DNA of 40,884 bases from IMG/VR virus record IMGVR_UViG_3300020057_000072, positions 1-40,884 of that record; one strand, written 5' to 3'. A model generated the notes under the pieces. It was not told where the DNA came from and made no database searches. It worked only from the letters and a program-made list of their open reading frames with translations. Of the stretch, positions 14,077 through 40,884 are shown in pieces (positions within the stretch are counted from its first letter, which is position 1; each line of letters begins with the position of its first letter). The stretch is from a virus. The position numbers were made by a program, and so were the translations under genes.

Positions 14077-14486
14077 TGAAACTGGGAAGAAATCCGATCA
14101 TACTTATACTTTTGAATTTCGTCGTCGGAGCGATGGTTTCTCAGGGGATTATAGAACCGAACAACCACAACACCGTCGTAGAGTACGCAGCAGAGATAGT
14201 CGGACTCGTCATTATTCTACTAACGACCATCGTATCCTTGATGAAGGTAGTAAAACACAAGAACCCAGAGGAGATGGCTCACGAGGGGTCTGCAATGCAG
14301 ACCCAGATGCCTACTTCCCCCACTATCTTGAATCAGCCAAGCATTCAGATTAATCCCCCACTTACGTTCGATAACCCAACGCCGGCTCAAACAGTGGATA
14401 CTGGAACTCCTCCACTTTTCACAGCTCCCACTTCACAGACAACAGCGACAGGAACTGAACAAGCAGTACCCCCAACTGTTCAGTAA
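14076..14486 (+). CDS. Holin-like two-helix membrane protein
   Basis: A 136-residue protein. Two hydrophobic helices are evident: about residues 7-25 (IILILLNFVVGAMVSQG) and 39-60 (IVGLVIILLTTIVSLM). They are followed by a short basic stretch and a long Pro/Thr/Gln tail. Position directly after the endolysin and this topology fit a holin that opens the inner membrane. The ATG shares its A with the endolysin stop. Confidence 0.75.
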   Translation: MKLGRNPIILILLNFVVGAMVSQGIIEPNNHNTVVEYAAEIVGLVIILLTTIVSLMKVVKHKNPEEMAHEGSAMQTQMPTSPTILNQPSIQINPPLTFDNPTPAQTVDTGTPPLFTAPTSQTTATGTEQAVPPTVQ

Positions 14487-14496
14487 AAACATACAG

Positions 14497-14613
14497 ATGA
14501 ACATAAAACTTGCACTTTTAGTTATGGGATATGGACTCTTTTTTTATGGCTTTATTGCCGACGAATGGCGCGGAGCAGCAGTCGGTCTCCTCCTCATCAA
14601 TCTAGGAATCTGA
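14497..14613 (+). CDS. Tiny membrane protein ending at the IS boundary
   Basis: A 38-residue, largely hydrophobic peptide (LALLVMGYGLFFYGFI, then AVGLLLINLGI). Its TGA stop is the first three bases of the inverted IS200/IS605-type end at 14611, so the natural C-terminus was probably cut off by the insertion. It may have been a second lysis protein. Confidence 0.5.
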   Translation: MNIKLALLVMGYGLFFYGFIADEWRGAAVGLLLINLGI

Positions 14614-14642
14614 CATACTCCCACGGCTAAAGCCAGTGGGGT
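14611..14642 (-). mobile_element. IS200/IS605-type right end, minus orientation (left border of cassette)
   Basis: The first 31 bases are the exact reverse complement of 18346-18376. The sequence folds into the family's typical imperfect hairpin: CCCAC/GTGGG and GGC/GCC stems, one bulged T and a TTTA loop. It overlaps the last codons of the tnpB fragment, as in intact elements. Confidence 0.8.
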
Positions 14643-14836
14643 TCTAAGGTCGCATAGCTTCTTTGCGTTGCCTTTTGGCGGGTATCAGACTCCGCTTGCA
14701 AAGAACTCTTTTCTCTTTGCAATTGACTAATGCTATCCGACAAAAACGCTATATTAAAAGCAGCGTTCACATCAGCATTGTCGACGTGTCCACAAGGACA
14801 CTTGAATAATTTGTCGTTTCTATTTCCCGGATCCAT
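14627..14836 (-). pseudogene. tnpB: C-terminal fragment of TnpB
   Basis: The minus-strand frame reads KCPCGHVDNADVNAAFNIA, the second zinc-ribbon pair plus the RuvC-III aspartate region of TnpB. It then ends LEPHWL and stops inside the hairpin, as many family members do. Everything upstream (RuvC-I, RuvC-II, first CxxC) is missing, and the sequence before the start reads as non-TnpB. It is a remnant, unable to cut DNA. It shows that the 14611 end belonged to an element facing left. Confidence 0.75.
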
Positions 14837-18164: not shown

Positions 18165-18344
18165 AATTTACTTTGGATGATGAGGCTAAAGAGGTCTGGA
18201 CGAATTAGAGGAGGCTCAAGGAAGACCGTAGGATGACCCCAGGATGACCCCAGACAGACTTTCTTTGCGTGGGGTGTATATTCCTATCATCCCCTCCTAG
18301 AATCGTATCCTAGGGGCAAGAACAGTAATGGTAATAAAATTGAA
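18165..18344 (+). ncRNA. Possible omega-RNA-like scaffold before the right end
   Basis: This 180-nt stretch has no convincing gene. It contains the near-tandem repeat AGGATGACCCC (twice) and a CCTAG/CTAGG stem inside a CCCC...GGGG pair, and runs into the right-end hairpin. In IS200/IS605 elements the region before the right end is transcribed as the guide scaffold for TnpB. Here no tnpB lies beside it, so it would be an orphan. Inferred from position and fold potential only. Confidence 0.35.
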
Positions 18345-18376
18345 GCCCCACTGGCTTTAGCCGTGGGAGTATGTCA
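18345..18376 (+). mobile_element. IS200/IS605-type right end, plus orientation (right border of cassette)
   Basis: The hairpin CCCAC-T-GGC-TTTA-GCC-GTGGG is followed by a short tail ending TATGTCA. Thirty-one bases are identical, inverted, to 14611-14641. It is a right end facing right, so the cassette 14611-18376 is bounded by two outward-facing right ends rather than a normal left/right pair. Confidence 0.8.
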
Positions 18377-18380
18377 GCAC

Positions 18381-20596: not shown

Positions 20597-20780
20597 CAAC
20601 GATCTGGCGACGGACGGAATCCAGCTAGGAGAACTACAGGAACAAACCAGAGAAATACAAAAGCAGAACAAAATCCTTCGAGAAGAAATACTCAAACGAA
20701 GCAGTCTCCGACACCTAACAGAAGAAGCAGAGAAGCAAGGATTCGTCCCTGCACAATACATTTATTTATATGATCGGTAG
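20517..20780 (+). CDS. FtsL/FtsB-like septum protein
   Basis: An 87-residue protein: a hydrophobic helix (about 8-26, LLVKLLMLIIMLLQLVKVYV), then SNDLATDGIQL, a coiled coil (about 36-62, IQKQNKILREEILK) and the tail SSLRHLTEEAEKQGF. This order of one membrane helix, a SNxLAT motif, a leucine coil and SSLxxxxxxAxxxGF is that of bacterial FtsL/DivIC-type division proteins, as I recall it. It could bind host FtsQ/FtsB partners and disturb septation. It ends at the border of the TnpB element. Confidence 0.5.
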   Translation: MTRRQTLLVKLLMLIIMLLQLVKVYVSNDLATDGIQLGELQEQTREIQKQNKILREEILKRSSLRHLTEEAEKQGFVPAQYIYLYDR

Positions 20781-22015
20781 AGTCAAGTGACTTTGCCCGC
20801 AATCCCACCTCTTTTAAGGGTGGGTCAAGGGCAAACTTGACTATATTCATTTTTTAAGTTAAAATGCATTTTATGAGAACTTTCGAGTATAAACTCAGAC
20901 CAAACAAAACACAGGAGCAAGAGTTGGACAGGCTACTTTGGGAAACAAAGTGTCTTTACAATTCTGCTCTCGAACAGCTCATAAATCACTATAAAGAAAC
21001 AGGCAAGCATCTCAACCGCTTCACTCACGATAGGCTGTGGAACAAAGAAACTTGTCCACAGTTACCAGCGGTTTTGGTAGATACCACTATTCTCAGACTT
21101 CACCAATCATTTGCTAACTTCTTCAGAAGGTTGAAGACAGGGGGAAAGCCAGGTTTCCCAAGATTTAAGAGTATTCATAGGTGGAGTAGTTTTAGCTTTA
21201 GGGATTATAAAAGCGGTGGCCGTGTTGTTGAGGATAGGTTACATATAAACCCGAAGACAAAAGTTAAAATAATTCTGCATAGACCACTAGAAGGTACGCC
21301 CAAGTTCACCAGAGTAGTTAAACGGGTAGACGGATATTATGTTCAAGTGGTTTGCGAAATGCCAGAAATTAAAGAAAAAGAATTAGATATTAATAAAGCG
21401 GTAGGGCTTGATGTGGGACTTCGTTACTTTGTGGCAGACAGTAATGGCGAAAAACACAAAGCCCCAAAATTCTTCAGAAAATCAGAGTATAAACTAGCAA
21501 AACAACAGCGTTTTCTTGCTAAGAAACAAAAAGGGGGTGCAAACCGTGGAAAGGCAAGAAAGCTGGTCGCAAAAACACATTTAACCATAAGCCGTCAACG
21601 AAAAGACTTTATACACAAATTAGCGTTCAAGTATTCTAACGAGAACGACATTGTGTGTATGGAAAATCTCAATGTACAAGGCATGTTAAAAAATCACTGT
21701 CTCGCTAAAAGTATCAGTGATGCTTCGTGGACAATGTTTCAATCATTTGTATCGTACAAGGTGCAAAACCTCGGCAAACGATTGGTATTGGTCAACCCTG
21801 CATACACATCTCAAATCTGTTCAGAGTGTGGGGCGATTGTTAAAAAATCTCTTTCACAAAGAACTCATTTTTGTCCAGAGTGCTTGTATGTAGAAGACCG
21901 AGATGTCAACGCAGGGAAAAATATATTGCGTTTAGGGTTGGTTCAACCCTTTGGCCAGAATAGCTCATTGGAGCGTTTTATTACCCAAGAAGCCCACGGA
22001 TTTATTCGTGGGTAG
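20781..22015 (+). mobile_element. TnpB-only IS200/IS605-family element (IS1341-like)
   Basis: The left end is a three-tier hairpin: AGTCAAGT/ACTTGACT, TTTGCCC/GGGCAAA, CCCACC/GGTGGG (20781-20842). The right end hairpin is CCCACG/CGTGGG (21993-22012), inside the tnpB 3' end. GGTAG flanks the left side (20776-20780) and also ends the element (22011-22015). Removing one copy of the 1235-bp element restores an open NinG-like gene, so the borders are precise. No tnpA is present; mobility would need a transposase in trans. Confidence 0.8.
20864..22015 (+). CDS. tnpB: TnpB RNA-guided nuclease
   Basis: A 383-residue protein (a start at ATG 20873 would give MRTFEYKLRP). The RuvC triad is intact: Asp183 in GLDVGLRYF, Glu267 in MENLNVQG and Asp347 in DRDVNAGKNI. 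The zinc ribbon is intact: CSEC (319-322) and CPEC (337-340). The length is normal for the family. With an omega RNA read from the right end it should cut DNA next to a target-adjacent motif, favouring element retention. The 3' end encodes the right-end hairpin. Confidence 0.9.
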   Translation: MHFMRTFEYKLRPNKTQEQELDRLLWETKCLYNSALEQLINHYKETGKHLNRFTHDRLWNKETCPQLPAVLVDTTILRLHQSFANFFRRLKTGGKPGFPRFKSIHRWSSFSFRDYKSGGRVVEDRLHINPKTKVKIILHRPLEGTPKFTRVVKRVDGYYVQVVCEMPEIKEKELDINKAVGLDVGLRYFVADSNGEKHKAPKFFRKSEYKLAKQQRFLAKKQKGGANRGKARKLVAKTHLTISRQRKDFIHKLAFKYSNENDIVCMENLNVQGMLKNHCLAKSISDASWTMFQSFVSYKVQNLGKRLVLVNPAYTSQICSECGAIVKKSLSQRTHFCPECLYVEDRDVNAGKNILRLGLVQPFGQNSSLERFITQEAHGFIRG

Positions 22016-22388
22016 ATTCACAATAGACCCGGCAGACAAATGGTTCTCCCTTTATATTAGAATGAGAGATAACTGGACGTGTCAAAGATGTGGAAGCTAC
22101 AACCCAAAGGGACAACAAAACTCACACTACTTCGGAAGAACCCGCGAAAGAGTAAGGTTCGACGAGGAAAACTGCGACACTCTCTGCCACGGATGTCATC
22201 GCTACTGGGAAAAAGAAGACAGAGAGGCGTACCGAGTATTCAAAATAACCCAGCTTGGAGAGATTGGATATCAAAAACTAACGGCAAGAGCTAACACCAC
22301 ACAAACGACAAACCGAAAAATAGAGCGAAATTTAATACAAATCCACTACGCCAAAAAGGTAAAAGAGATGGAAAAAACTATGATCTAA
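22016..22388 (+). pseudogene. NinG/HNH-like recombination endonuclease, split by TnpB element
   Basis: The bulk of the gene is here: DPADKWFSLYIRMRDNW, CQRCG, then SHYFGRTRERVRFDEENC and CHGCH, which fits NinG/Rap-type or related HNH phage nucleases that process recombination intermediates. The original start is ATG 20770 (ATG ATC GGT AG), overlapping the FtsL-like stop, with the element between codon 4 positions 2 and 3. The frame is open back into the element to TTG 21951, so a fusion product or restart (ATG in YIRMRDNW) could still be made. Confidence 0.7.
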
Positions 22389-22469: not shown

Positions 22470-22739
22470 ATGACACCAGCCAAGAATACAGTTATACTAA
22501 GAGCTACTAAGCTAAAAACCAAATCAGGACTGGAGTCGATAGAAACAGGCAAAAACGCTCCCGAAATCGGAGTCATAGTAAAGATAGGAACAGGGACTCC
22601 ACCAGTTAAAATCGCAGAAGGAGATACCATCGTGTACCGCAAGTACATGGAGAACAAAGTCTATATCCCAACCGAAGGGGAAGAATTGAACTTCATCGAC
22701 TTTAAAGATATAGTCGCAAACTTAGGAAAACAAAAATGA
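22470..22739 (+). CDS. groES: Co-chaperonin GroES
   Basis: An 89-residue protein with the GroES beta-barrel pattern: NTVILRATKLKTKSG, a mobile loop region (about 20-33, ESIETGKNAPEIG), GVIVKIGTG, AEGDTIVYRKYMENK and a final FIDFKDIVANL, the usual C-terminal strand and helix. It caps the GroEL ring and sets the folding chamber. GroEL is two genes downstream. The mobile loop is diverged, as expected for a protein matched to its own phage GroEL. Confidence 0.8.
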   Translation: MTPAKNTVILRATKLKTKSGLESIETGKNAPEIGVIVKIGTGTPPVKIAEGDTIVYRKYMENKVYIPTEGEELNFIDFKDIVANLGKQK

Positions 22740-22942
22740 ATAACGATACAAAATTAGAATACGTTCACAAACTACTGACAAAGGCATTTGAAACCTTGAT
22801 GGAAGAAAAGAAAGCCAAACCCTCTCGTGAAAACTCCGAAACCCTCACCTTACTGGAAACCGCAATGATGTGGAACAACAAAGACCGAGCCGTCAAAGGC
22901 GAATTAGAAAAATCCGACACTCATATCCAGCAACAGCAATGA
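22736..22942 (+). CDS. Acb2/Tad1-like cyclic-nucleotide sponge (anti-CBASS/Thoeris candidate)
   Basis: A 68-residue protein. An N-terminal helix (VHKLLTKAFETLMEEK) is followed by PSRENSETLTLLETAMMWNN. This is close to the hairpin motif of the Acb2/Tad1 group as I remember it (SRExSxxLTxLExAxMWxN). Those proteins bind cyclic di/trinucleotides or NAD-derived signals and so block CBASS or Thoeris defence. The gene overlaps groES by 4 nt (ATGA), placing anti-defence and chaperonins in one unit. A structural or binding test is lacking, so it remains a candidate. Confidence 0.55.
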   Translation: MNNDTKLEYVHKLLTKAFETLMEEKKAKPSRENSETLTLLETAMMWNNKDRAVKGELEKSDTHIQQQQ

Positions 22943-22945
22943 CGA

Positions 22946-23016
22946 TCCCGAATCGTCTAGCGGTAGGATAGCTGACTTTGAATCAGCAGAGTGAAGTTCG
23001 AATCTTTATTCGGGAA
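22946..23016 (+). tRNA. tRNA-Gln (anticodon TTG)
   Basis: The acceptor stem TCCCGAA/TTCGGGA is perfect. The D-arm is GTC/GAT around TAGCGGTAG. The anticodon stem GCTGA/TCAGC has the loop CTTTGAA (anticodon TTG). The T-arm is TGAAG/CTTTA with TTCGAAT. The discriminator is A and no CCA is encoded. The groEL ATG begins 6 nt after the discriminator base. It reads CAA, a common codon in this genome's late genes. Confidence 0.92.
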
Positions 23017-23022
23017 CAACAA

Positions 23023-24678
23023 ATGAAAAAAATAATATTCGGAAGCGAAGCTAGGCAAAAGTTATTACAAGGAGCAGTTATCGCTTATAGAGCCGTTTGT
23101 ACTACGCTCTCACCAAAAGGACGAAACGTCGGTATTACAAGGCAATGGGGAACACCAATAGCGGTTCATGATGGCGTTACAGTTATGAGAGAAGTAGAAG
23201 ACAGGGACGAGTTTGTAAATACAGGTATTCAGTTTATTAGGGAAGCAGCACAGAAGACAAATGAGGAGGCAGGCGATGGTACGACTACGGCAACCCTTCT
23301 GGCATACCACATTATAGACAAAGGAATGAAGCTCCTCGAAAAAGGAATAAACCCCATGATCCTCAGAAAGCAAATGGACGACGCAGTCCCAGCACTAAAG
23401 GAGCAACTCAAGAAAATCAGCAAATCAATCATGGGAACAGAAGACATCCAAAGAGTAGCATTCATATCTTCCGCCGATGAAGAAATAGGAAAAGTGGTAG
23501 CACAAGCCGTCGAAAAAGTAGGCGAACACGGACTGATAACCGTTGAAGAAGGCGGAGTCGAAATGGGAATCGACTACACCGAAGGAATGGAGTTTGACAA
23601 GGGATACGCAGCTCCACATTTTGTAACAAGCCCTCAGAGAATGGAAGCAATAATCGAAGAACCACTCGTCGCAGTTTTAGGAAAGAAAGTAACTCTTGTA
23701 AAAGAAATAATGCCCTTACTAGAAGTGATGGCAGCAATCAAAAAGGATATCTTAATAGTTGGAGAAGTTGAAGGCGACGCTTTGAAAACCGTCATCGTCA
23801 ACAAAATGAAAGGGAACATCAACATATTAGTAGTAACTCCACCAAGCTACGGTGACAGGAGAACATCCTCCCTTGAAGACATCGCACTCATAACAGGAGC
23901 AACAGTGGTATCAGAAGAACTCGGACTGGACATGGTACAGTTTACCAATCAGTTCGAAAAGAAATGGCTCGGACTTGCCAAGACAGTTGTCGCCGGACGC
24001 AACTCAACCGTCATTATAAAGATGGAGGAGAAAGACACCATCAACGAAGAATGGAAAAAAGATATATTGGAACGAAACAAGAAGGTAGCAGAACGCATCG
24101 AAAATTTGAAAGCCAATCTCGAAACCGAAACCTCAGTCTACGAGAAAGAGAAAATACAAGAACGCCTAGCAAAACTAACAACAGGCGTCGCCATTATAAA
24201 AGTCGGAGCGAAAACCGAAGCATCCATGCGTGAAAGATTAGAGAGAACCAAAGACGCAGTATCAGCAGCACGAGCAGCAGCCGAGGAAGGAATAGTACCC
24301 GGAGGCGGAGTCGCATTTCAACAGATGGCATCTATATTTATGGGAACGCCAAGTAAAAAAATGATGCTGAATGATGGCGAACAATTATTATATGACGTGT
24401 TACACGAACCGACACTCAAACTGCTCGATAATGCAGGAGAAGATGAAAAACAGAAAGCTCTCATCGTTGGAAAAATCAAACAAGCAGGTGGCGATTTTGG
24501 ATACAACGTAAACACAGGCAAGATGGAGGATTTAGTAAAAGCAGGTGTTATAGACCCAGCGAAAGTGATACGATTATCTGTAGAAAACGCAGTCGCTGTC
24601 GCCGGAACAATCTTATCAACAGATTGTTTGATAGTGGACGAACGTGAGCAAACTCAGACTCAAATGCAGGTAGTATAA
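23023..24678 (+). CDS. groEL: Chaperonin GroEL
   Basis: A 551-residue protein. ATG 23023 was chosen because an earlier TTG lies inside the tRNA. ATPase features are present: Asp50 in HDGVTV, DGTTT (85-89), the KDAVSAARAA segment with an Asp at the D398 position, and PGGGVAF near residue 426. The apical domain is recognisable (PPSYGDRRTSSLEDIA, like the usual FGDRR). The C-terminal Gly-Gly-Met repeats are absent, replaced by a Gln/Thr-rich tail. It folds proteins in ATP-driven double rings with GroES, probably capsid or other phage proteins. Confidence 0.95.
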   Translation: MKKIIFGSEARQKLLQGAVIAYRAVCTTLSPKGRNVGITRQWGTPIAVHDGVTVMREVEDRDEFVNTGIQFIREAAQKTNEEAGDGTTTATLLAYHIIDKGMKLLEKGINPMILRKQMDDAVPALKEQLKKISKSIMGTEDIQRVAFISSADEEIGKVVAQAVEKVGEHGLITVEEGGVEMGIDYTEGMEFDKGYAAPHFVTSPQRMEAIIEEPLVAVLGKKVTLVKEIMPLLEVMAAIKKDILIVGEVEGDALKTVIVNKMKGNINILVVTPPSYGDRRTSSLEDIALITGATVVSEELGLDMVQFTNQFEKKWLGLAKTVVAGRNSTVIIKMEEKDTINEEWKKDILERNKKVAERIENLKANLETETSVYEKEKIQERLAKLTTGVAIIKVGAKTEASMRERLERTKDAVSAARAAAEEGIVPGGGVAFQQMASIFMGTPSKKMMLNDGEQLLYDVLHEPTLKLLDNAGEDEKQKALIVGKIKQAGGDFGYNVNTGKMEDLVKAGVIDPAKVIRLSVENAVAVAGTILSTDCLIVDEREQTQTQMQVV

Positions 24679-39210: not shown

Positions 39211-40249
39211 TACAGCCGTACCATTTGACCCAAACTACCGTGTTGTCATGGCAGCGAAAGTGCAAGGAACGACATCGGATGTCGCTCCCCTACTTGTTGA
39301 CTCAGTGACAGGACGTCTTCTAGTTGACGTTAGTATTTCAGGAGCAGCATTACAAGACGGCGTAGACACAGCAATAAAAGCAACCATCTTCGACTACACA
39401 AACTCAAATCCACTAGCCGTAGTATTACGAGATACAAATGGCGACTATGTCTCAGTTGGAGGCGGAACACAATATGATGAAGACACCGTATCAACAGCAG
39501 CCGACAAAATAACAATGGCAGGAGTTGTCAGACGAGATACCGCCTCAACTCTCGCAGGAACAGACGGTGACAGAACCCAGCTAATAGTAGACGCAAACGG
39601 ACTCCTACACATAAATGTAGGTGTTTCAGTATTGCCAACAGGAGCATCAACCGCAGCCCATCAAGTAACACAAAACGGATATCTTGACGGTATAGAAGGA
39701 CTCCTATCAACTGAAAACACCAACTCCGCAGCCATAGCAGCCTCCGCCTCAGTCCTTGACGATTGGGATGAGTCAGACAGGGCAAAGGTAAATACCATCG
39801 TCGGGCAAGCAGGAGTAGCAGCAGGAGCAGGAGCAGTAGGAGTAACCGTACAAAGAATGACTCTCGCCTCAGACGATCCAGCTGTAACACGAATAGAAGC
39901 GAATGTGGACTCCTCAACCATGTGGGCGGATGGAGTAGAGGTAACGGTAAAAAGAGCAATCGTTGACGCAGCAACCAGTGGAAATAATACGCTTTTAGCC
40001 TCCGTCTCCTCAAAAAAGATTAGGGTTCTCTCTCTTTATTTAGTATCAGCCGGAACAGTAAACGTACGCTTTGAATCAGGAGCAGACGGAACAGCACTCT
40101 CAGGACAGATGAACCTCATAGCAAACTCAGGATTCACTCTCCCCTACAACCCGAGGGGATGGTTTGAAACAGCAGCAACAACCCTTCTCAACCTTGAACT
40201 GTCAGCAGCAATATCAGTTGATGGAGGTTTCACCTACATCGAGGTATAA
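39203..40249 (+). CDS. Virion appendage protein
   Basis: A 348-residue protein with repeated short beta units (DTVSTAADKITMAGVVRRD, then GDRTQLIVDANGLLHINVG), a helical hinge (DDWDESDRAKVN) and a C-terminal beta domain (about 245-348). I associate this pattern with metagenomic phage structural proteins of unknown role. It probably forms a base or fibre part, upstream of the ConA/fibronectin-like gene. Confidence 0.55.
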   Translation: MASTAVPFDPNYRVVMAAKVQGTTSDVAPLLVDSVTGRLLVDVSISGAALQDGVDTAIKATIFDYTNSNPLAVVLRDTNGDYVSVGGGTQYDEDTVSTAADKITMAGVVRRDTASTLAGTDGDRTQLIVDANGLLHINVGVSVLPTGASTAAHQVTQNGYLDGIEGLLSTENTNSAAIAASASVLDDWDESDRAKVNTIVGQAGVAAGAGAVGVTVQRMTLASDDPAVTRIEANVDSSTMWADGVEVTVKRAIVDAATSGNNTLLASVSSKKIRVLSLYLVSAGTVNVRFESGADGTALSGQMNLIANSGFTLPYNPRGWFETAATTLLNLELSAAISVDGGFTYIEV

Positions 40250-40252
40250 ATT

Positions 40253-40340
40253 ATGGCAAATATAATTATTTTTAAAGCAGGAGGGATTTAATTTTATGGC
40301 AGATCTAAAAATTTCAGCATTAACAGTATCAAACGTATAA
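40253..40340 (+). pseudogene. Two truncated fibre-gene starts
   Basis: ATG 40253 gives 12 residues (MANIIIFKAGGI) and ATG 40296, behind an AGGAGG site, gives 14 residues (MADLKISALTVSNV). The second is the familiar opening of many phage fibre proteins (MADLKISxLT) but stops at once. They are probably remnants of replaced fibre genes, or short translated leaders. Confidence 0.45.
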
Positions 40341-40341
40341 T

Positions 40342-40884
40342 ATGGCAGCACCAACAGTAGCTCTTAATACTCCAGCAGATGCAGCAACAGGTGTTTCTAC
40401 TACTCCAGCCTTACTCTTTACAGGAACAGATGCAGAGAGTAATGAGATTGAATATAACGTACAGGTAGATACGGTAAACACTTTTGATAGCCAAGTTGCT
40501 ACTCTTGATAGTTACAGCGAATCTAATCGAGGCTGGCAAAACGCTCTGCAAAGTGCTGGCCTCACACGTGCTGGGCAATCATTTACGGGGAATGGTAATA
40601 AAGTTTCTTCTGCCAAGTTTTATTTGCAAAAAATTGGAAGCCCCACGGGAAACATAGTTTCTACTATATATGCACACACTGGGACTTATGGTGGTGGCGG
40701 AACAGCCACAGGATCTGCCTTGGCTACATCAAGTAACGTTGACGTTACTACCATAGGTGGATCTTGGAGTTTAATAACCTTTACTTTTACAACTCCATAT
40801 ACAGTGGATAATGGCACTAGGTACTGTATCGTAATTGAGTATAGTGGAGGAGATGCAAGTAATAAAATTGAGTATGGATTCGAC
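40342..40884 (+). CDS. ConA/fibronectin-like appendage protein, 3' truncated by window end
   Basis: 181 codons without a stop. It begins APTVALNTPADAATGVSTTP, a fibronectin-like strand set, then EIEYNVQVDTVNTFD. A jelly-roll-like domain with repeated strands follows (KFYLQKIGSP, then TPYTVDNGTRYCIVIEY). The usual continuation of the first part (VQAG..YYWRV) is what is found at bases 2-286, so the domain order suggests a jelly roll inserted in a fibronectin-like unit. Probably a receptor- or glycan-binding fibre. Confidence 0.6.
   Translation, partial: MAAPTVALNTPADAATGVSTTPALLFTGTDAESNEIEYNVQVDTVNTFDSQVATLDSYSESNRGWQNALQSAGLTRAGQSFTGNGNKVSSAKFYLQKIGSPTGNIVSTIYAHTGTYGGGGTATGSALATSSNVDVTTIGGSWSLITFTFTTPYTVDNGTRYCIVIEYSGGDASNKIEYGFD

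What the first reader, a model, noticed from the sequence alone, without database searches (positions are those of the whole stretch)
20770..22388. TnpB element caught in the fourth codon of a NinG-like gene, with a restorable empty site
Deleting 20781-22015 rejoins ATG ATC GGT AG with ATTC and restores one continuous NinG-like frame whose ATG overlaps the FtsL-like stop. GGTAG flanks the left end and also ends the element. The 3' flank (22016 onward) would act as the guide, so TnpB should recognise exactly the uninterrupted allele, with a motif at or within GGTAG on its 5' side. The phage thus carries a nuclease aimed at its element-free sisters.
Basis: partly seen in the sequence, partly recalled or inferred. 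Interest (0 to 1): 0.75.

Follow-up and report, generated by a model that had tools for sequence, protein, structure and literature searches.

The report
Phage TnpB element interrupting a NinG-like gene

Summary
The element is real: a complete TnpB gene, with its catalytic residues and zinc ribbon, lies between IS200/IS605-type end hairpins and separates an ATG from a NinG-like HNH ORF. No TnpA was found in the window. Another phage contig in IMG/VR holds the last 106 bp of the element at 100% identity, and the identity stops exactly after TTCAC at 22021. A multi-copy cyanobacterial family with nearly the same right end (CGTGGGTAGTTCAC) stops at the same motif. A related Deinococcus element, excised by the same rule, gives a gap-free match to an intact gene. 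So the right end is 22021 (shown) and the guide starts at 22022 (AATAGACCCGGCAGAC...). The left end is most likely 20774/20775 with target motif ATGAT (inferred). The predicted empty allele is ATGAT|AATAGAC = MIIDPADKWF..., also in frame. A nuclease aimed at the uninterrupted allele follows from established TnpB biology, but no close intact sister was found to test it. Verdict: new member of a known kind.

The parts
On the ATGAT joint it would run about 11 residues further in the empty allele and is cut short by the element's left end
20770..20774 (+). ATGAT: predicted target-adjacent / left cleavage motif, overlapping the ATG of the NinG-like gene (inferred)
   Evidence: 7 nt from the left-end stem, as in the G001 family; the only well-spaced candidate that keeps a start codon in frame once the right end is 22021; close to TTGAT of ISDra2 and ATGAC of the Deinococcus relative
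20775..22021 (+). whole TnpB-only IS200/IS605-type element, 1247 bp (right end shown, left end inferred)
20782..20841 (+). left-end imperfect palindrome GTCAAG...CTTGAC with inner stem
   Evidence: sequence and fold
20864..22015 (+). tnpB, 383 aa (a second ATG at 20873 is also possible); RuvC D/E/D and zinc-ribbon cysteines present
21916..22021 (+). 106-bp 3' part (guide-RNA scaffold region) found 100% identical in another phage contig, identity ending exactly at 22021
21993..22012 (+). right-end hairpin CCCACG-N8-CGTGGG, followed by TAGATTCAC (22013-22021)
22022..22041 (+). predicted guide AATAGACCCGGCAGACAAAT (first 16-20 nt of the 3' flank)
   Evidence: position from the right end; guide rule from PMC8612924 and PMC11043419
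22008..22388 (+). interrupted NinG-like HNH ORF as it stands now; GTG at 22008 overlaps the tnpB stop; native part from 22022
   Evidence: Pfam NinG 4.2e-9, PHROG_5034 1.5e-19; alignment with L002 and L003; frame

Best explanation
This is a TnpB-only IS200/IS605 (IS1341-type) element of 1247 bp (20775-22021), inserted 3' of an ATGAT pentamer at the start codon of a phage NinG-like HNH gene. A TnpA acting in trans presumably put it there by single-strand 'peel and paste', without target duplication. [quoted passage not shown] With TnpB it should cut ATGAT-AATAGACCCGGCAGAC..., that is, the uninterrupted NinG-like allele left by excision or carried by element-free sister phages, which is then repaired from an element-bearing copy. 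The phage's own interrupted allele is spared because the guide match is preceded there by TTCAC, not by the motif. Shown here: gene, hairpins, right end. Inferred: left end and motif. By analogy only: guide-RNA processing, cleavage, homing.
For: Protein family, intact catalytic positions and solved-structure relatives. Right end: identical 106-bp copy in another phage ending at 22021; multi-copy family in genome G001 ending at TTCAC with unrelated flanks; Deinococcus relative whose excision by the same rule aligns gap-free to intact ptsP (82% over 311 bp); TTCAC end with the guide directly after it and TTCAC not cut as a motif, in Sulfolobus TnpB7 (PMC11043419). Left end: 7-nt spacing as in G001 and a start-bearing in-frame joint. 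Intact NinG-like relatives without an element exist in other virus contigs. No Y1 transposase in the window.
Against: No copy with the same left end or an empty allele was found. The ISDra2 residues that contact the motif (Y52, S56, K76, F77, Q80, T123, N124) are not conserved here, and the Gln that all compared full-length relatives share (Q80) aligns with Asp, so the motif cannot be read from the protein. Activity and expression are untested.
Confidence: 0.78

Rival explanations
1. One reading: element 20781-22015 flanked by GGTAG, guide from 22016 (ATTCACAATAG...), motif GGTAG.
For: A GGTAGA repeat at both sides and a restored frame MIGRFTIDPADKW.
Against: The element's identity with another phage's copy continues through ATTCAC to 22021; all relatives end after TTCAC/GTCAC; GGTAG would lie 1 nt from the left stem against 5-7 nt in relatives; the right-hand GGTAG is hairpin arm plus tnpB stop.
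Confidence: 0.03
2. Same right end (22021), but the left motif is TTTAT (20765-20769) or another pentamer, so the native start of the NinG-like gene lay elsewhere.
For: TTTAA is the motif of the G001 family and of Sulfolobus TnpB7; the DnaB-like fragment next to the scaffold copy in G003 is compatible with any motif ending in AT.
Against: TTTAT is 12 nt from the left stem, and the joint leaves the NinG-like frame without an ATG, GTG or TTG start.
Confidence: 0.15
3. An inert or decaying insertion: the element landed in the gene, has no transposase at hand, and does nothing now beyond altering the start of the NinG-like gene.
For: No TnpA in the window; the NinG-like ORF stays open from a GTG overlapping the tnpB stop, so it could be tolerated; remnants of a sister family lie in the same genome.
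Against: The tnpB frame, catalytic residues and both hairpins are intact, and the scaffold is 100% conserved with a copy in another phage.
Confidence: 0.2

Closest known systems
ISDra2 TnpB of Deinococcus radiodurans (PMC8612924, PMC10097598; PDB 8BF8, 8H1J)
   Same: TnpB architecture over residues 5-361, RuvC D/E/D and zinc ribbon; end hairpins; guide expected from the 3' flank; motif expected 5' of the target.
   Different: About 33% identity; residues that contact TTGAT are not conserved; right end TTCAC; no tnpA beside it; inside a phage gene.
IS605-type TnpB7 elements of Sulfolobus islandicus (PMC11043419)
   Same: Right end TTCAC with the guide directly after it; TTCAC itself is not cut as a motif.
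   Different: Motif there is TTTAA; archaeal host.
IS200/IS605 gene drive in plasmids (PMC11870625)
   Same: TnpB cuts element-free copies of the same replicon and favours element-bearing ones, the behaviour proposed here for sister phages.
   Different: Shown in plasmids; not tested here for the phage.
Multi-copy TnpB family of cyanobacterial genome G001 (L034, L036, L042, L044, L054)
   Same: Right end AGAAGCCCACGG...CCGTGGGTAGTTCAC and left stem GTCAA... 7 nt from the motif.
   Different: TnpB only about 34% identical; motif TTTAA; chromosomal.

Membership tests
TnpB RNA-guided nucleases | OrfB_IS605 and Cas12f1-like TNB domains | tested here: met
   Pfam 4.8e-24 and 5.5e-21, above curated cut-offs
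TnpB RNA-guided nucleases | RuvC D/E/D catalytic residues and CxxC...CxxC zinc ribbon | tested here: met
   D, E, D aligned to ISDra2 D191, E278, D361; CSEC/CPEC present
TnpB RNA-guided nucleases | guide RNA from the 3' end of tnpB plus flank, and guide-directed DNA cutting | not testable with these tools
   needs RNA reads and cleavage assays
IS200/IS605 (IS1341-type) elements | subterminal hairpins at both ends and a right end in TTCAC or similar | tested here: met
IS200/IS605 (IS1341-type) elements | insertion 3' of a short motif without target duplication | tested here: inconclusive
   right end fixed; left end and motif inferred from spacing and frame only; no empty allele of this phage found
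IS200/IS605 (IS605-type) | TnpA (Y1 transposase) gene in the element | tested here: not met
   no PF01797 match in the whole window; hence IS1341-type, TnpB only
NinG/Rap HNH nucleases | NinG profile match with conserved Cys/His positions | tested here: met
   Pfam NinG 4.2e-9 covering model positions 79-192 of 193 (N-terminal part absent), PHROG_5034 1.5e-19; alignment with L002 and L003

The most novel reading that the evidence does not exclude
The scaffold of this element also circulates among different phages without tnpB (an identical 106-bp piece with a DnaB-like fragment as its flank, and a miniature left-end/right-end copy, both in contig G003). TnpB from one phage could then be loaded, in a co-infected cell, with guides carried by another, giving a shared guide network among phages rather than one self-homing element.
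Probability: 0.08. Interest if true: 0.7.

Novelty: new member of a known kind. Interest (0 to 1): 0.35.

Why it matters
If active, it is a clear phage case of TnpB homing: the guide covers the first codons of a phage recombination-type nuclease gene, so element-free relatives would be cut and converted, as already shown for plasmids. The corrected ends give exact, testable predictions (motif ATGAT, guide AATAGACCCGGCAGAC). The tnpB-less scaffold copies in another phage are the less expected part and may deserve their own look.

Tried and rejected
Search for the uninterrupted allele by exact flank DNA, by the neighbouring gene and by the terminase (which found a sister, L006, about 99% identical but not covering this locus): not found. 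Exact left-end DNA in viral contigs: none. Close TnpB relatives in viral contigs and GTDB genomes (only cyanobacterial hits of 29-48% identity), and DNA-level relatives in phages and plasmids: none close. Empty sites for related phage elements: no intact sister at those loci. The DnaB-fragment site in G003 as a motif test: compatible with any motif ending in AT, so not decisive. ISDra2 motif-contact residues as a motif test: not conserved, not informative. That contig G003 is merely a chimera at a contig end was weakened, since the piece lies at 14.4 kb of 49 kb with even GC on both sides, but a chimera is not excluded.

Full report
What is there. The window is a 40,884-bp IMG/VR virus record; a second contig (L006, about 99% identical over its longest stretch) covers roughly 29-39 kb and 0.5-2.5 kb of it but not this locus. 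Between a short upstream ORF and a NinG-like HNH ORF lies a complete tnpB (20864-22015), with the RuvC D/E/D positions and zinc ribbon of ISDra2 TnpB conserved. It is preceded by a strong imperfect palindrome (20782-20841) and followed by the hairpin CCCACG-N8-CGTGGG (21993-22012). No Y1 transposase is found in the window. The NinG-like ORF is recognised by Pfam and PHROGs and has relatives without an element in two other virus contigs (L002, L003).

The right end. Three results put it at 22021. First, contig L060/G003, a different phage, holds window 21916-22021 at 100% identity and departs at the very next base. Second, a family with several copies in a cyanobacterial genome (G001) has almost the same end, AGAAGCCCACGG...CCGTGGGTAGTTCAC, and the copies whose right end could be read depart after TTCAC into unrelated flanks. 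Third, a Deinococcus plasmid element (L009, TnpB 38% identical, hairpin plus 9 nt ending in GTCAC), when cut by this rule, leaves flanks that align without a gap to the intact ptsP of another Deinococcus (82% over 311 bp). In Sulfolobus, TTCAC is the experimentally supported right end, the guide follows it directly, and TTCAC in motif position is not cut (PMC11043419). The window also has 9 nt after the hairpin (TAGATTCAC), as in L009.

The left end. No second intact copy was found, so this is inference. In the G001 family the motif TTTAA is followed by 7 nt and then the GTCAA stem; in L009 the motif ATGAC is followed by 5 nt (and sequence). In the window ATGAT (20770-20774) is 7 nt from the GTCAAG stem, TTTAT (20765-20769) 12 nt, GGTAG 1 nt. 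With the right end at 22021, the ATGAT joint reads ATG AT|A ATA GAC CCG, MIIDPADKW; the TTTAT joint leaves the NinG-like frame without a start codon. ATGAT is close to TTGAT of ISDra2. I put ATGAT near 0.8 and TTTAT near 0.15. Both deletions restore the frame because their lengths (1235 and 1247 bp) differ by a multiple of three.

How it most likely works. [quoted passage not shown] The expected target is ATGAT-AATAGACCCGGCAGAC, the uninterrupted gene. The phage's own copy is spared because TTCAC, not the motif, precedes the match. Cutting an element-free copy in a cell that also holds the element would copy the element in, as shown for plasmids (PMC11870625). The nearest intact relative, L002, reads ...CTAAA|AATAGACAAAGC...: no motif and only the first seven guide bases in a row, so only close sisters would be targets. 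None was found, so the claim about sisters is untested.

Effect on the interrupted gene. The NinG-like frame remains open into the element and has a GTG at 22008-22010 that overlaps the tnpB stop (GTGGGTAG), which would give MGRFTIDPADKW.... A product made by restart after tnpB is therefore possible; this is inference.

Beyond the finding. Contig G003 carries, besides the 106-bp piece, a miniature copy in which 30 bp of the left end are joined directly to about 100 bp of scaffold, but with a different terminal hairpin. That other hairpin end (GGCTTTAGCCGTGGGAGTATGTCAG) occurs at two places in the window and once more, with a mismatch, in G003; of the four copies only the one at 14.6 kb of the window keeps part of a tnpB. 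So two related right-end types are scattered over two phages, mostly without their nuclease. Whether these are debris or working guides cannot be told from sequence.

Verdict. New member of a known kind.

Noticed in passing
window 14611-14836, minus strand: 5'-truncated remnant of another TnpB (DPGNRNDKLFKCPCGHVDNADVNAAFNI...) with its right-end hairpin CCCACTGGCTTTAGCCGTGGG and AGTATGTCAG, next to the end of a small ORF.
   Followed up: partly
window 18344-18377, plus strand: Solo copy of the same right-end hairpin (AGCCCCACTGGCTTTAGCCGTGGGAGTATGTCAG) without any tnpB, just upstream of a small ORF.
   Followed up: partly
L068 519-624 (G003 14418-14523): 106 bp identical to the 3' end of the window's element in an otherwise different phage, followed by the C-terminal part of a DnaB-like helicase whose N-terminal part is not found in the contig.
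   Followed up: partly
L069 (G003 22793-22934, minus strand): Miniature copy: 30 bp of the left end fused to the guide-RNA scaffold region, no tnpB, ending in the other hairpin type also seen in the window; a mosaic of the two right-end types.
   Followed up: partly
window 22470-22739 and 22978-24678: Phage-encoded GroES-like (Pfam Cpn10 6.2e-9) and GroEL-like ORFs directly downstream of the NinG-like gene, with a tRNA-Gln gene at 22946-23017.
   Followed up: no
L006 against window 39327-40884 and 1-553: The sister contig L006 runs from the window's right end on to its left end, so the window genome is probably circular or permuted and close to complete.
   Followed up: no
G001 (genome of L015): 155 TnpB-like matches in one cyanobacterial genome bin, an unusually large load.
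   Followed up: no
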